Part shown: positions 21,340 to 26,739 of the stretch, piece after piece
Layout of the letters: the number at the start of each line of letters is the position of its first letter
Numbering within the stretch: position 1 is the first letter of the stretch
DNA from: Magnetococcales bacterium
GTDB taxonomy: Bacteria; Pseudomonadota; Magnetococcia; Magnetococcales; Magnetaquicoccaceae
Assembly (NCBI GenBank): GCA_011089965.1
Contig: JAANAU010000032.1
Span: 1 to 38,259 of the forward strand
Direction: 5' to 3'
Length of the DNA stretch: 38,259 nucleotides
Notes under the pieces: model-generated
Told to the model about the DNA's origin: nothing
The model's input: the letters and a program-made list of their open reading frames with translations, nothing else
The model's database searches: none
Position numbers and translations under genes: made by a program

Positions 21340-21660
21340 TCAAATATTTTCCGCCCAATTGCCGATCAGCGGCAATTTCCAGGCTCGCCCCGTGAAGACC
21401 GAAATCAGACCGATCACGGAAAATGTGAAGCACAACAGACTGGAAATGCCGAAGAACAGGCGTCCCAGCCCCGGGAACACCAGGCTGTAGATGGCCAGAA
21501 CCTCCCACATCCACAACACGATCCCCTGCCGGGCATGAAAGCGCACATAGGGATCCTCCCGGTTCACCACCAGAGGAACCAGCGAAAGAATGCCCAGGTA
21601 GCTCATGGCTGCGAGCATCCGGGTGGTCAAGCTGCGTGACATGGTCAATGTCGATGACAT
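21340..21660 (-). CDS. mamF: MamF/MmsF-family magnetosome membrane protein
   Basis: The protein has 106 residues, three hydrophobic segments, and belongs to the DUF4870-type family. Family hallmarks are MLAAMSYLGILSLVPLV near the start and the DPYVRFHARQGIVLW motif (about 36-50). MamF and MmsF control crystal size and shape, and MmsF forms proteinosomes that template magnetite. The gene lies between mamK and mamL, a placement I associate with Magnetococcus. In Magnetospirillum, mamF is in the separate mamGFDC operon. A second paralogue lies at 28337-28660. Which of the two is MamF and which is MmsF cannot be decided by eye. Confidence 0.88.
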   Translation of the reverse strand: MSSTLTMSRSLTTRMLAAMSYLGILSLVPLVVNREDPYVRFHARQGIVLWMWEVLAIYSLVFPGLGRLFFGISSLLCFTFSVIGLISVFTGRAWKLPLIGNWAENI

Positions 21661-21711: not shown

Positions 21712-22746
21712 TCAGGCAGAGGCGACGTGTCCGACCTGATCCCAATATTGCGGCGGCAATTCCATGGCCAGTTTCAGGGCACCGACAACGCCACAGTAGT
21801 CGGGATCCGGAACCTGCTGCACCTGCACCGTGCCGTAACCCTGCATCATCGCCACGATCATCTCTTCAAGACCACGAATCTTGGAGCCGCCACCGGTCAG
21901 ATAGATGTTCTTCAGCGCCTCTTCCTGATCCTCGGGATCGAAGACGCTGATCAAAGCCTGCAGATGCTCCACGATTTCGCTGACAATGGATTCGCAGGCC
22001 GTGCGGACCTCCTTGGTCAGGTTGATCGAGACCGGCTTGCCAGAGACGCGCATGTTGACGACAATCTCCTCCTTGGGTGTGCCGACAAAGGCATGCTGTT
22101 CCTTGATCTTGCGTGCCAGATTGTTGGTCATCTGTACGTGCGGATGGTTTTCGCGGATCAGGTTTTCCAGCACGACATCGATGTAGTTGCCAGCCTTGAG
22201 TACGGTCACCTGCTCGTTCACCCCAGGAATCGTACCCATCATGGCGCAGATGTCGGTTGTGCCGCCCCCGATGTCGATGATGATGGCGTTGTTCAATTGA
22301 TCGATGGCGTAGGCGGCCATGAACGGCTCCGAGACCACCATGGAGAGATCCAACAGTTCGTGCGTGATCTTCAACAACTGATTCTTGTTGAACAGCGATG
22401 CCCGAGCCGGTACGCCCAACACCCCGTAGATCTTCTCGCCGGGCAGAGGGTTCATGAGGGTGATGGCATGTTTGATCAACAGTCTGGCTGCTTCCGTGGC
22501 CTGGTCATTGGCATCCTTGAGCACGCCATCTTCCAGAGGATAGTGGATGTTCAGATAGGATTGCCGTTTGAGCGCCTCTTCGCCGATCATGTACGAATGA
22601 TGCATCAGCTTGACGCCAATGATATCCTTGGGATAACCGACAACGGAGCGGACCGTGGATTTGTCCCCACGGCTGGACATGATCATGGTCCTGGATGTTC
22701 CCAGGTCGATCCCGAGCAAGAGTGGACTGCGGTCGGTTTTTTGCAT
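21712..22746 (-). CDS. mamK: MamK, actin-like magnetosome filament protein
   Basis: The protein has 344 residues and belongs to the actin/Hsp70 ATPase fold. Phosphate 1 motif: LLLGIDLGTSRT (about 9-20). Phosphate 2: AIIIDIGGGTTDICAM (about 154-169). Adenosine motif: IYLTGGGSKIRGLEEM (about 297-312). MamK polymerises into dynamic filaments that position and segregate the magnetosome chain and interact with MamJ and related proteins. The length agrees with known MamK (about 347). Upstream of it, 77 bases away, is a mamJ-like acidic repeat gene, which matches the mamE-J-K order of Magnetospirillum. Confidence 0.96.
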   Translation of the reverse strand: MQKTDRSPLLLGIDLGTSRTMIMSSRGDKSTVRSVVGYPKDIIGVKLMHHSYMIGEEALKRQSYLNIHYPLEDGVLKDANDQATEAARLLIKHAITLMNPLPGEKIYGVLGVPARASLFNKNQLLKITHELLDLSMVVSEPFMAAYAIDQLNNAIIIDIGGGTTDICAMMGTIPGVNEQVTVLKAGNYIDVVLENLIRENHPHVQMTNNLARKIKEQHAFVGTPKEEIVVNMRVSGKPVSINLTKEVRTACESIVSEIVEHLQALISVFDPEDQEEALKNIYLTGGGSKIRGLEEMIVAMMQGYGTVQVQQVPDPDYCGVVGALKLAMELPPQYWDQVGHVASA

Positions 22747-22823: not shown

Positions 22824-24557
22824 TTACTCTTTGGCCGGCTTGAATGCCTGGAAGACCGAACCGATGGCTCCCAGTACCGGCATGGTTACGATGCCGACCG
22901 CACCCACCACGATGTTGCCGGCTCCGATAACGATCTCGGCCACACCGCCGCCCGCACCCTTGACCCCTTTGGCAATGCGACGCGCAGCGCGGTCGGTGCC
23001 GGAGAGCTTCGGACCCGGAGCTTCCGGCATGGGATCCTCACCTGTCACCGTGGACTGCACCTTGCGGGCGGTCGCAGCGCTTCCCTCGACCACTGCACCC
23101 ACCATGTCACCAAGAACATTGAAAATCCCGCTTCCCAGCGACTCCACCGGCACCTCAACGGATCCATCCTCGGCAATGCGTCGTCCAGAACGCCTGCGAG
23201 GTTGTTTGGCAGCAGTTGCGGCCTCCGGTTGGGGGGTTGCATCGTCGGTTGCCTTGGGACGCGGTTTTTTGATCTCCAATTCCTCCGGCATCGGTTCATG
23301 ACCTTTCAACTGACGCAAAAACGCCTCAGTCAAACGGGTCTGACTCGGTGATGGGAGAGGATCCATCTTCATCCGGGAACCGGACGGAACCTTCATGGAA
23401 GGAGGCAGCAACACTGTGGGCTGGAGCGGTTTGGTGGTTTCAGCAGCAGGAGTTTCCACCGGCTGGATTGCAACGACAGGAGCGGCCTGCACCTCGACCG
23501 CCGCCGCAGGCTCTTCCGGTACGGAAGAGGTTTCAGGCGCGACAATCGTGGTGACATCTTCCTGGATCGTGAAACCGGTTGCTGTTGCGACTTCCGGTGC
23601 ATCGGTCACAGTCGGGGCCTCTTCAACAACAACCGGGGTCTCGGTTGGAGCCGGAGCCTCTTCTTGCGGAACCATGCGTGCCCGCAACGTGGCGCGCAGG
23701 TCAAAGCCATCCTCCATGCGTTTGGAGGCTGCATCCCGGATCATTTTCAAGACCCGCTCCTTTTCGGCAGCGGCCACATAGGGATCCTTCTTCGTCATGT
23801 TCAGATCAACCTTTGGGCTATCGTCCTCAGGTTTGGCCACCTCTTCGGCAGTCTGAGCCGACGTGCGCGCCAGGTCGGTGAAGTGATCTGCCAGTCCGGA
23901 CATTTCGGCCATCTTCTCAGTGATCGGATTGGTTGGCTTTTCTTCCGACGTGACCGCATCAACAGCAGGTGTTACGACAGGAGCGGCTTCGACAGCAGGT
24001 GTTACGACAGGAGCGGCTTCGGCAGCAGGTGTTACGACAGGAGCGGCTTCGGCAGCAGGTGTTACGACAGGAGCGGCTTCGGCAGCAGGCGTTACGACAG
24101 GAGCGGCTTCGGCAGCAGGCGTTACGACAGGAGCGGCTTCGGCAGCAGGTGCCTCGACAGGAGCGGCTTCGGCAGCAGGTGCCTCGACAGGAGCGGCTTC
24201 GGCAGCAGGTGCCTCGACAGGAGCGGCTTCGACAGCAGGTGCCTCGACAGGAGCGGCTTCGACAGGGGCGGCCTCGACAGTGGGTGATGCCACGGGAGCG
24301 ATCACAGCAGCAGGCGTTTCTTTGACTGCGGCGCGCTTCAATGTCGGCTTGGACTCTTCGGTTGGTGCCGAGACCGGGGATTTGCCGTTTTGTCTCACTT
24401 TCAGCTTATCATTGATCTGACGTTGCAACACGGCATCCATCTGGCTGGCAGCCGCATCCTCGGAACCCACTGGTTCGACTTCCACGGATTTCTCACCAAT
24501 GGATTGCGGCTTGACACTTTTTTTCTCTTCCCCAGGACCGTCTTTGATTTTTTCCAT
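22824..24557 (-). CDS. MamJ-like acidic repeat protein at the mamE-mamK interval
   Basis: The protein has 577 residues. A charged N-terminus (1-80) leads to ten or more in-frame copies of a decapeptide EAAPVVTPAA / EAAPVEAPAA (about 94-200), then Glu/Pro/Val-rich acidic sequence with two predicted helices (about 205-285), a basic patch (KQPRRRSGRR, about 448-457) and a C-terminal Gly/Ala/Ile-rich hydrophobic stretch (about 527-567, GGVAEIVIGAGNIVVGAVGI). There is no alignable family domain. Magnetospirillum MamJ has the same architecture and position: a central acidic repeat, a hydrophobic Gly/Ala C-terminus, and a location between mamE and mamK. There it ties magnetosomes to MamK filaments. 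I infer a functional analogue, not proven homology. A good AGGAGAAAC site precedes the ATG. Confidence 0.7.
   Translation of the reverse strand: MEKIKDGPGEEKKSVKPQSIGEKSVEVEPVGSEDAAASQMDAVLQRQINDKLKVRQNGKSPVSAPTEESKPTLKRAAVKETPAAVIAPVASPTVEAAPVEAAPVEAPAVEAAPVEAPAAEAAPVEAPAAEAAPVEAPAAEAAPVVTPAAEAAPVVTPAAEAAPVVTPAAEAAPVVTPAAEAAPVVTPAVEAAPVVTPAVDAVTSEEKPTNPITEKMAEMSGLADHFTDLARTSAQTAEEVAKPEDDSPKVDLNMTKKDPYVAAAEKERVLKMIRDAASKRMEDGFDLRATLRARMVPQEEAPAPTETPVVVEEAPTVTDAPEVATATGFTIQEDVTTIVAPETSSVPEEPAAAVEVQAAPVVAIQPVETPAAETTKPLQPTVLLPPSMKVPSGSRMKMDPLPSPSQTRLTEAFLRQLKGHEPMPEELEIKKPRPKATDDATPQPEAATAAKQPRRRSGRRIAEDGSVEVPVESLGSGIFNVLGDMVGAVVEGSAATARKVQSTVTGEDPMPEAPGPKLSGTDRAARRIAKGVKGAGGGVAEIVIGAGNIVVGAVGIVTMPVLGAIGSVFQAFKPAKE
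23971..24270 (-). repeat. Ten tandem 30-base repeats inside the mamJ-like gene
   Basis: Ten head-to-tail 30-base units start at 23971, 24001, 24031, 24061, 24091, 24121, 24151, 24181, 24211 and 24241. The first six (plus-strand view) begin GTTACGACAG and the last four GCCTCGACAG, and all continue GAGCGGCTTC. Partial units flank both sides. Each unit encodes ten residues (EAAPVVTPAA or EAAPVEAPAA). There are no spacers, so it is not a CRISPR array. The near identity implies recent expansion by slippage or unequal recombination. Confidence 0.95.
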
Positions 24558-24612: not shown

Positions 24613-26739
24613 CTATTGCAGTGTTACGAACATTCTTTTTCCGTCACGTTCCACATCGAGAAGAATCGTCTTGGCCGTGGCGCTGGCCTTGATCGCCTTG
24701 TCCAGATCCGCATTGCTGCCGACTGGATTGCCGTTGATCGCCACGACGATGTCGTTGGCACGAATGCCGGCCATGTCCGCTTGCAGTCCAGGATCCACTT
24801 CACCCACCAGGGCACCCTGCTTGTTCTTGAGGGTGGGATTCTTGGCTGCGGCTCCCTTTTGGATCGGTTGCAGTTCCATGCCGAACCACTCGAATTCCGT
24901 GGGTGGCTTGGGTTGACCGGTCTTGGCCTTGGTTTTGGCAGGCTCTGCGGCCTGAGCAGGCACCATGGGGGCAACCTGGGTCGCCTCCAGTACGGAGAGC
25001 GGAGGTGCCACATGGACCGGTTGCGGATTCATGGTGAGAACCACTTCCATGCGTTGCCGCTTACGCGCCAGCGAGAAGCGGGCCTTGTCGCCGATCCGAA
25101 TCTCCTGTAGACGTTGCTGCAATTCATCGGTCGAGCGTACCCAGCGGCCATTGATCTTGAAGATGATGTCCCCAGGCTGAAGACCGCCGCTCTCGGCCAG
25201 AGAACCGGGTTGCATGGATTGCAAAAAGACTCCGGTCGAATAAGGGGGTTGAAACCGTTTGACGAGTTGATCGTCGAGCGGTCTGAACTCAGCGCCCAGA
25301 ATCGCCGACAGTACACTGGCTGCCGGTGCCGAAGGATTCGTTGCCCCAACCGCATTGGTTGTGCCTGCTCCATTGGCGCCAGTGACCGCATTTTGCGCCG
25401 GTCCGATTGGATTCATGCCGCCACTGCCGGTTGGATTGCCGGGTTGTTGGGGATTCAACGAGATATTGATACCATTGGCACCCCCAGGAACCCCTGTGTT
25501 GCCGGTTTGGTTGATCGGTTGACCACTGCGCAGAATGACGTGACAATTCTCACAAGGTCCGCGATCCCCGTGCGGTGCCACGGCATTGACGGGAATCGGC
25601 GGCGGGCCGGGACGGGTCGTGGCTGCGACGGGACGTCCCTGACCGAGCCAACCCGGTTGGGTCATGGCCGGGGTGACCTCCGGAATCGAAATCACCTCGG
25701 CGATGAACTCCTTGACACTGTTGACCGGCACCGCGAAGCCCACACCAGAGAAGGCCTGCGTGGGCGAATAGATGGCGGTGTTGATGCCGATCACATAGCC
25801 GTAGCGGGAGACGAGCGGACCGCCTGAATTACCCTGGTTGATGGCGGCATCGGTCTGGATCAGATCCTTGTGGATCGTGCCTTCGATGGTGACTGCCTTG
25901 CGCGCTCCGGAGATGATCCCCTTGCTCACGGTTTGATCCAGTCCGAACGGACAACCCACGGTGATCACCGGATCCCCAACCAGGAGCAGATCGCTGTTGC
26001 CGAGCGGGGCCGGTTGCAAGGGGATCGGGACGTTGATCTTCAACAAAACCAGATCACGTGTTGGATCCAGACGCACCACATCGGCAGGATAGCGCTGCAT
26101 GCCATAGGGACCGAATACGGTCACGAAGACATTTTGCGAATTTTCCACCACATGGAAATTGCTGACGATGTAACCATCCGCCGACACGATCACACCGGAG
26201 CCGATGCTTTCCATGGCCACACCCGAAAAAGGGCTGGCAAATTTCAGTCCATCAGGACCGACCGGCGTGACAACATTGGCCGATTGCACTGTTTGCGCCG
26301 CATTGGGTTGCTGAGAGAGCGGGGCGCTCATCGGCATGGTGTTGGGCAGGGTTGTGCTGCGATTCTGCGTGCTGACGTTCACAACGCTCGGCAGAATGGA
26401 GCGGACCACGGTGGGGAACGACTCCTGATCGCTGGGGGTTGTATTCGGATTTTGAAACAGGGGTTGCGGCCACACCAGTCCGGCCTGCTGACCTTGCGCC
26501 CCCGTGAACGCAGGGGCGGTTTGCAGCGGCGTGCCGGGCAGTTCGGTGATCGCCTGGACTCCTCTTTGTCCAACGTCGCGCGTCAAGGCGACCGCCTTTT
26601 CGGAGTCGAAGCCGATCTCGTCGAGAAAATAGTTCAGATACCAGTAGCTTCCAATCAGGCCCAAAACGGCCATGGCCCCCAGAATGTAGAGGTATTTTCT
26701 GTATTGGAGTCCACATTCGACGCTTTTGCTGGAAAACAT
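24613..26739 (-). CDS. mamE: MamE, HtrA-like magnetosome protease with one magnetochrome motif and two PDZ domains
   Basis: The protein has 708 residues. It contains a transmembrane segment (about 18-38), a trypsin-like domain (about 108-350) with an intact triad H196 (VSNFHVV), D229 (TRDLVLLKI) and S305 (GNSGGPLV), a magnetochrome motif APHGDRGPCENCH (CxxCH at 396-400), a Pro/Asn/Gly linker, PDZ1 (about 490-590, TGVFLQSMQPGSLAESGGLQ) and PDZ2 (about 615-708). MamE sorts proteins to the magnetosome and, by proteolysis of MamE, MamO and MamP, switches on crystal growth. Magnetospirillum MamE carries two CxxCH motifs. Only one is found here. It lies between mamI and the mamJ-like gene. Confidence 0.96.
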   Translation of the reverse strand: MFSSKSVECGLQYRKYLYILGAMAVLGLIGSYWYLNYFLDEIGFDSEKAVALTRDVGQRGVQAITELPGTPLQTAPAFTGAQGQQAGLVWPQPLFQNPNTTPSDQESFPTVVRSILPSVVNVSTQNRSTTLPNTMPMSAPLSQQPNAAQTVQSANVVTPVGPDGLKFASPFSGVAMESIGSGVIVSADGYIVSNFHVVENSQNVFVTVFGPYGMQRYPADVVRLDPTRDLVLLKINVPIPLQPAPLGNSDLLLVGDPVITVGCPFGLDQTVSKGIISGARKAVTIEGTIHKDLIQTDAAINQGNSGGPLVSRYGYVIGINTAIYSPTQAFSGVGFAVPVNSVKEFIAEVISIPEVTPAMTQPGWLGQGRPVAATTRPGPPPIPVNAVAPHGDRGPCENCHVILRSGQPINQTGNTGVPGGANGINISLNPQQPGNPTGSGGMNPIGPAQNAVTGANGAGTTNAVGATNPSAPAASVLSAILGAEFRPLDDQLVKRFQPPYSTGVFLQSMQPGSLAESGGLQPGDIIFKINGRWVRSTDELQQRLQEIRIGDKARFSLARKRQRMEVVLTMNPQPVHVAPPLSVLEATQVAPMVPAQAAEPAKTKAKTGQPKPPTEFEWFGMELQPIQKGAAAKNPTLKNKQGALVGEVDPGLQADMAGIRANDIVVAINGNPVGSNADLDKAIKASATAKTILLDVERDGKRMFVTLQ

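What the first reader, a model, noticed from the sequence alone, without database searches (positions are those of the whole stretch)
22824..24557. MamJ analogue with decapeptide repeats in a Magnetococcus-like island
The protein lies exactly where mamJ lies in Magnetospirillum (mamE-J-K), is acidic and repetitive, and ends in a Gly/Ala/Ile hydrophobic stretch. I recall that mamJ is regarded as absent outside Magnetospirillum-like strains, so this may be a convergent or highly diverged MamK-magnetosome connector.
Basis: partly seen in the sequence, partly recalled or inferred. Interest (0 to 1): 0.7.

Follow-up and report, generated by a model that had tools for sequence, protein, structure and literature searches.

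The report
MamJ-type magnetosome anchor in magnetotactic cocci
A repetitive protein encoded between mamE and mamK in a magnetotactic coccus shares with MamJ, the protein that ties magnetic organelles to an actin-like filament in Magnetospirillum, the short C-terminal segment that anchors MamJ in the organelle membrane, although MamJ is reported as absent from cocci.

Summary
It is a homologue of maq1, a mamE-mamK gene of unknown function described in the coccus UR-1 (2019) and found again in HHB-1 (2026). I found no published link between maq1 and MamJ.

Aa 466-505 (EVPVESLGSGIFNVLGDMVGAVV...) match the C-terminal segment of Magnetospirillum MamJ. A profile built only from alphaproteobacterial MamJ C-termini finds the window ORF and about 40 other ORFs directly upstream of coccus mamK genes; reversed and shuffled controls fail. 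Profile-profile probability is 93%. The segment occurs in 44 of 46 coccus genomes with MamK; in Rhodospirillales it tracks MamK (32 genomes with both, p=4e-37).

In M. gryphiswaldense the segment coincides with the helix (aa 359-379) that inserts MamJ into the magnetosome membrane with help from MamF-like proteins. The genome's only MamF-like gene lies just downstream of mamK.

MamJ's N-terminal motif is absent and NCBIfam's MamJ model does not match, so this is not a MamJ equivalog. Best reading: a magnetosome-anchored, disordered adaptor working like MamJ on a different arm. MamK binding is inferred, not shown.

The parts
22824..24557 (-). The ORF, 577 aa: Maq1 homologue with a MamJ-type C-terminal anchor
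   Evidence: conserved family of 18 in cocci, 25-65% identical; 35% identical to the UR-1 mamE-mamK ORF (= maq1)
24387..24464 (-). Conserved N-terminal helix (aa 32-57, consensus LDaVLQxQLxDKLK); candidate partner-binding motif
   Evidence: conservation and AlphaFold pLDDT about 70-90; not in alphaproteobacterial MamJ
23963..24265 (-). Tandem array, 10.1 x 30 bp, decapeptide APV(E/V)(A/T)PA(A/V)EA; hypervariable flexible linker, counterpart in character of MamJ's CAR domain
   Evidence: arrays in 31 of 44 orthologous-position ORFs
23673..23936 (-). Conserved central helices (aa 208-295, including VAAAEKERVLKMIRDAASKRM); candidate partner-binding motif
   Evidence: pLDDT 83-87 in aa 260-280
23298..23375 (-). 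Conserved helix (aa 395-420, PSPSQTRLTEAFLRQLKG)
23043..23168 (-). MamJ box (aa 464-505, EVPVESLGSGIFNVLGDMVGAVVEGS...): the segment homologous to the MamJ membrane-anchor helix
   Evidence: 19.9 bits, E=8.6e-5 with an alphaproteobacterial MamJ-only profile; hhalign 93%, P=3.1e-7; maps on MSR-1 MamJ aa 354-379
22842..22943 (-). Second, glycine-rich hydrophobic C-terminal segment (aa 539-572); probable additional membrane-associated element, specific to cocci
   Evidence: hydropathy peak 2.1; found in coccus relatives, not in alpha MamJ
21712..22746 (-). mamK (actin-like), proposed partner
   Evidence: NCBIfam MamK 509 bits, cut-off 400
21340..21660 (-). mamF-like gene (DUF4870/HOTT, 106 aa), proposed membrane-insertion factor; only DUF4870 hit in the genome
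   Evidence: Pfam 26.5 bits, cut-off 25
24613..26739 (-). mamE-type protease, upstream neighbour in the same operon
   Evidence: Trypsin_2, PDZ, magnetochrome domains; NCBIfam MamE 417 bits, below the 800-bit cut-off

Best explanation
The ORF encodes a long, mostly disordered magnetosome adaptor (a Maq1) that works like MamJ. Its C-terminal 'MamJ box' helix, helped by a second glycine-rich segment, is inserted into the magnetosome membrane, probably by the MamF-like protein encoded just downstream of mamK. The acidic, repeat-expanded arm with four short conserved helices projects into the cytoplasm and tethers the magnetosome to MamK, or to MamK plus another partner. Shown here: existence, conservation, homology of the anchor segment to MamJ, linkage to a specific mamK lineage, co-occurrence with MamK. 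Shown elsewhere for M. gryphiswaldense MamJ: membrane targeting by this segment and interaction with MamF-like proteins. Inferred: membrane insertion of this protein, the role of its neighbour MamF-like, and MamK tethering by the arm.
For: (1) HMM from 17 alphaproteobacterial MamJ C-termini hits the window ORF (19.9 bits, E=8.6e-5) and about 40 other ORFs directly upstream of coccus mamK, up to 32.6 bits, among 2,562 six-frame ORFs; best reversed decoy 6.6 bits, best of 7,683 shuffles 8.8 bits. (2) Reciprocal coccus profile: MamJ are the top alpha hits (E 2.3e-4, 0.011), none in reversed sequences; hhalign 93%, P=3.1e-7, 39% identity over 33 columns, control with MamD 0.6%. (3) The published MamJ C-terminal signature VPVEx4GxF (PMC2818848) is matched exactly by VPVESLGSGIF; in the coccus loci that pattern hits 11 of 2,562 ORFs, 9 of them upstream of mamK, and none reversed. 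(4) Whole genomes: box in 44 of 48 Magnetococcia, none solid in 13 phylum-mates without a MamK over the cut-off; Rhodospirillales 32 with both box and MamK, 2 box only, 3 MamK only, 260 neither, p=4e-37; one of the two box-only genomes has a truncated mamK at a contig edge. (5) The box maps on MSR-1 MamJ aa 354-379, i.e. the membrane helix 359-379 that targets MamJ to magnetosomes, binds MmsF/MmxF and is needed for chains (PMC11628618). (6) MamKs next to this ORF type form one clade of 18 with support 1.0; 10 label changes on the tree against a shuffled mean of 25.6. (7) Proven MamJ substitute Mg-1g50 carries a degenerate box.
Against: No biochemical data for any coccus protein. MamJ's N-terminal motif is absent and NCBIfam MamJ does not match. 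Maq1-bearing UR-1 and FCR-1 have unchained or clustered magnetosomes and the HHB-1 authors conclude that Maq1 gives no evidence for a role in chains (PMC12791574). The box contains Asp484, unusual in a membrane helix, and its hydropathy (1.2) is moderate. The AlphaFold models of the C-terminus are of low confidence (pLDDT 51). A MamF-like ORF was found in only 31 of 44 box loci fetched.
Confidence: 0.68

Rival explanations
1. The protein is a magnetosome-membrane organiser that acts independently of MamK, for example by clustering or spacing magnetosomes through its repetitive arm; only the anchor is shared with MamJ.
For: Published hypothesis for Maq1; strains with Maq1 show non-linear arrangements (PMC12791574, PMC6783814). 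MamJ's N-terminal motif, one of its two conserved motifs, is missing.
Against: Position directly upstream of mamK, one clade of cognate MamK proteins, and genome-level co-occurrence with MamK. Other anchored substrates (MamD) lack the box.
Confidence: 0.17
2. The box is primarily a MamK-docking motif rather than a membrane anchor; the second glycine-rich segment is the anchor.
For: Box and MamK co-occur (p=4e-37); some box proteins have their own transmembrane segments (L183:340-1017, L192:283-912); several coccus proteins carry box variants but end right after it. From memory, an early two-hybrid study placed a MamK-binding region in the MamJ C-terminus.
Against: MamJ variants truncated in or next to the helix lose chain formation but keep magnetoskeleton binding, and the isolated C-terminus goes to magnetosomes (PMC11628618). 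McaA, whose end has a weak box-like stretch, still binds MamK without its 530 region (PMC12642318).
Confidence: 0.1
3. The resemblance is convergent: a glycine-zipper targeting signal for MamF-like proteins, with no common descent with MamJ.
For: MamD, Mms5 and MamJ share glycine-rich C-terminal helices as MamF-like substrates with low sequence similarity (PMC11628618). The shared stretch is only about 33 residues, partly of biased composition.
Against: The most conserved residues (V-P-V-E-x-L-x-x-G) lie at the polar start of the segment, not in the zipper; shuffled and reversed controls with the same composition fail; MamD of the same window does not match.
Confidence: 0.05

Closest known systems
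[quoted passage not shown] Magnetaquicoccus inordinatus UR-1; also HHB-1, FCR-1)
   Same: Same position and clear homology: window ORF against the UR-1 locus 156 bits, 35% identical; all conserved motifs shared.
   Different: Different repeat unit and length (577 vs 723 aa). Published as family-specific with no relation to MamJ noted; here the C-terminal segment is traced to MamJ and, in wider form, across the class.
MamJ / LimJ of Magnetospirillum
   Same: Position between mamE and mamK, acidic repeat-rich variable arm, C-terminal VPVEx4GxF plus glycine-rich helix.
   Different: No DxWx2LLExSPWS N-terminal motif, no NCBIfam NF040987 match, repeats unrelated, extra coccus-specific C-terminal segment, four coccus-specific helices.
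Mg-1g50 of Magnetovibrio blakemorei MV-1
   Same: Adaptor upstream of a mamK that substitutes for MamJ experimentally (PMC10653835); carries a degenerate box and a second hydrophobic segment.
   Different: 289 aa, no repeats, box score only 11 bits.
MamJ-like of Rhodovastum atsumiense G2-11
   Same: Long acidic mamE-mamK protein that restores chain-like arrangement in an M. gryphiswaldense mamJ mutant (PMC9938234).
MamD / Mms5
   Same: Ala-rich arm plus glycine-rich C-terminal helix, targeted by MamF-like proteins (PMC11628618).
   Different: No box; biomineralisation proteins.

Membership tests
Maq1 | gene between mamE and mamK in a magnetotactic coccus | tested here: met
Maq1 | sequence homology to the UR-1 gene | tested here: met
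MamJ (NCBIfam NF040987 equivalog) | score above the 100-bit cut-off | tested here: not met
   no NCBIfam hit; Magnetospirillum controls 331-551 bits
MamJ | N-terminal motif DxWx2LLExSPWS | tested here: not met
   alpha N-terminal profile finds no coccus ORF upstream of mamK; pattern 0 of 2,562
MamJ | C-terminal motif VPVEx4GxFx2AxSA | tested here: inconclusive
   core VPVEx4GxF exact; the AxSA tail is replaced by LGDMV; profile and hhalign positive
MamJ | C-terminal glycine-rich membrane helix | tested here: met
   by sequence and alignment only: box aligns with MSR-1 aa 354-379
MamJ | acidic, repetitive, hypervariable central region | tested here: met
   unit unrelated in sequence, so a likeness of character only
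MamJ | binding to MamK | not testable with these tools
   needs co-sedimentation or two-hybrid
MamJ | localisation to the magnetosome membrane dependent on MamF-like proteins | not testable with these tools
   a single DUF4870 gene lies next to mamK

The most novel reading that the evidence does not exclude
MamJ is not a Magnetospirillum invention. A family of 'box' adaptors, with one conserved membrane-anchor segment on freely exchanged, repeat-expanding arms, is part of the ancestral equipment shared by alphaproteobacterial magnetotactic bacteria and Magnetococcia, including MC-1, for which mamJ is reported missing. Each mamK lineage carries its own version.
Probability: 0.6. Interest if true: 0.72.

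Novelty: new variant of a known kind. Interest (0 to 1): 0.6.

Why it matters
How cocci attach magnetosomes to MamK has been open because MamJ was scored as absent from MC-1 and the Ca. Etaproteobacteria (PMC2818848, PMC6783814). A shared anchor segment gives a sequence handle on the missing adaptors of nearly all Magnetococcia, links the orphan Maq1 to a protein of known function and to MamF-like insertion, and turns the question into rescue and swap experiments in M. gryphiswaldense. It also offers a test case for how a short anchor is kept while the rest of a cytoskeletal linker is replaced.

Tried and rejected
Pfam/NCBIfam on the ORF: only a low-complexity Extensin_1 match below its cut-off, dismissed as composition. 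Plasmid collection: no match. Alpha MamJ N-terminal profile against cocci: nothing. Coccus N-terminal, central and final glycine-rich motifs against alpha MamJ: nothing, so the match is confined to the box. My first idea, that the box is the MamK-docking site, was demoted after reading that this segment is MamJ's membrane anchor and that truncations there keep magnetoskeleton binding. The relaxed regular expression [VI]x[VI]Ex4G[hydrophobic] is useless on its own (56 hits, but 38 in reversed sequences); conclusions rest on the profiles. The McaA C-terminal resemblance (9.4 bits, E=0.03) is too weak to use. AlphaFold models of the whole protein (pLDDT 47) and of the C-terminus (51) show only disorder plus helices, so no fold search was run. 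Two class/order searches failed because the handle type was wrong.

Full report
What is there. The feature is a minus-strand ORF of 577 aa at 22824-24557 with a Shine-Dalgarno-like AGGAG, 55 bp after mamE and 77 bp before mamK. The operon reads mamD, mamH, (small ORF), mamE, this ORF, mamK, mamF-like, mamL-like, mamM, mamN, mamO, mamP, a TPR protein (mamA position), a LemA protein (mamQ position), mamB. The decapeptide repeat is coded by 10.1 copies of a 30-bp unit, 97% matching. Arrays of other units occur in 31 of 44 coccus ORFs at this position, always with periods divisible by three, and almost never in the flanking mamE and mamK. The repeated stretch is therefore a fast-changing in-frame linker.

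Relatives in cocci. I took the regions around the MamK genes of 46 Magnetococcia genomes. Eighteen ORFs (including the window's) belong to one clear family (82-618 bits against the window ORF) that shares five motifs separated by variable repeats: an N-terminal helix (aa 32-57), central helices (208-295), a helix at 395-420, the segment EVPVESLGSGIFNALGDMVGgVV (464-505) and a glycine-rich end GNIVvGtvGiVTMPVxGAvGxxfrAFKP. AlphaFold places confident helices only on the first motifs and predicts the rest as disordered. One member lies in a genome whose contigs of 44,671 and 7,100 bp match the published UR-1 assembly, so it is maq1; UR-1's authors already noted that maq1 sits where mamJ sits and might be a linker. 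A 2026 paper found maq1 in HHB-1 and doubted a role in chains. None of the papers I could find connects maq1 with MamJ by sequence.

The link to MamJ. Alphaproteobacterial MamJ sequences were taken from named genomes next to mamK and confirmed with NCBIfam MamJ for Magnetospirillum-type examples. A profile made only from their C-termini was searched against all 2,562 six-frame ORFs of the coccus loci. Nearly all hits above 9 bits are the ORFs directly upstream of mamK; the window ORF scores 19.9 bits (E=8.6e-5), others up to 34 bits, reversed decoys at most 6.6 and shuffled decoys at most 8.8 bits. The reciprocal search, more weakly, puts MamJ on top. Profile-profile comparison gives 93% probability, P=3.1e-7, 39% identity over 33 columns, while MamD as a control gives 0.6%. 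The window matches exactly the core VPVEx4GxF of the MamJ C-terminal signature that Rioux et al. 2010 found only in magnetospirilla; the tail of their pattern is not matched.

Distribution. With the combined profile A1, 44 of 48 Magnetococcia have a box protein; two of the four without it also lack MamK over the cut-off and the other two are incomplete; 13 phylum-mates without a MamK over the cut-off have none at E<0.005. For sequences that went into A1 the scores are by construction, so the independent evidence is the alpha-only search and the genomes outside A1. Among 297 Rhodospirillales, 32 have both MamK and box, 2 box only, 3 MamK only, 260 neither (Fisher p=4e-37; related genomes are not independent, so the p-value is nominal). 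On inspection one box-only genome has a mamK cut by a contig end, and two of the three MamK-only genomes have an ORF before mamK with a marginal box. A 4,719,581-bp single-contig genome, which I take from memory of its size to be Magnetococcus marinus MC-1, has a 1,254-aa box protein directly after a mamE-type gene. A genome with the published MV-1 arrangement has the 289-aa ORF matching Mg-1g50 with a degenerate box (PMC10653835).

Mechanism. In M. gryphiswaldense MamJ (426-aa numbering) VPVE falls at 354-357 and the box helix on the membrane helix 359-379. Paulus et al. 2024 showed that the C-terminus (334-426) alone goes to the magnetosome membrane, interacts with MmsF and MmxF, and that deletions next to or within this helix abolish chain rescue while leaving magnetoskeleton binding intact. 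The conserved part is thus the organelle anchor, and the variable part is the arm. By analogy the window protein is inserted by the MamF-like protein encoded just downstream of mamK, the only DUF4870 protein in the genome, and its arm reaches the filament. Which arm motif, if any, binds MamK is unknown. The MamKs next to this family form one clade with full support, and the two other MamKs of this genome fall in a large clade with almost no box neighbours, which fits a dedicated pair but does not prove contact.

Verdict. Membership in Maq1 is met. Membership in MamJ as an equivalog is not: the curated model and the N-terminal motif fail. 'Works like MamJ' remains the best explanation (0.68) because the anchor is homologous, the position and partner lineage are conserved, and two other diverged proteins in comparable positions, Mg-1g50 and MamJ-like[G2-11], have been shown by others to substitute for MamJ. 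The new element is the sequence link from MamJ to Maq1 and to most Magnetococcia.

Noticed in passing
L044:2247-2579, L042:5395-5727, L059:4020-4346, L073:5396-5716, L065:2118-2408, L061:1768-2223, L066:1671-2030: Small acidic proteins (96-151 aa) with a box at their N-terminal part lie just downstream of mamK in several coccus families; apparently undescribed minimal box proteins.
   Followed up: partly
L183:340-1017, L192:283-912: Proteins with two N-terminal transmembrane segments and a C-terminal box next to mamK, in the presumed MV-1 genome and one other.
   Followed up: no
L164:3725-4087, L168:2904-3215, L169:1456-1824, L170:938-1390: Small box proteins in Magnetospirillum-type genomes, away from mamJ and limJ; one has N-terminal hydrophobic segments.
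   Followed up: no
L178:7339-11103: 1,254-aa box protein directly after a mamE-type gene in the genome that looks like Magnetococcus marinus MC-1, where mamJ is reported absent.
   Followed up: partly
L201:6173-8503: VWA-domain protein beside the mamK-like gene, apparently McaA of AMB-1, ends in a weak box-like stretch VPVQGLTTGIADLVG (9.4 bits, E=0.03).
   Followed up: partly
G000:C25:57843-58844 and G000:C56:75219-76220 (L084, L099): The window's genome has two further MamK genes over the family cut-off, without a box protein upstream, in a separate MamK clade.
   Followed up: partly
L196:1374-3203, L197:174-764, L041:2314-4182: Some box proteins carry two boxes in tandem.
   Followed up: no
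window:30124-38175 (+): Divergent cluster of a MotA/apolipoprotein-like 1,251-aa protein, a 314-aa protein, an EH_Signature protein and FeoB, resembling the set next to feoAB reported for UR-1.
   Followed up: partly
window:2437-10575 (-): Signalling genes beside the magnetosome operon: hybrid histidine kinase (1,033 aa), STAS, Hpt, CZB and hemerythrin-PilZ proteins.
   Followed up: no
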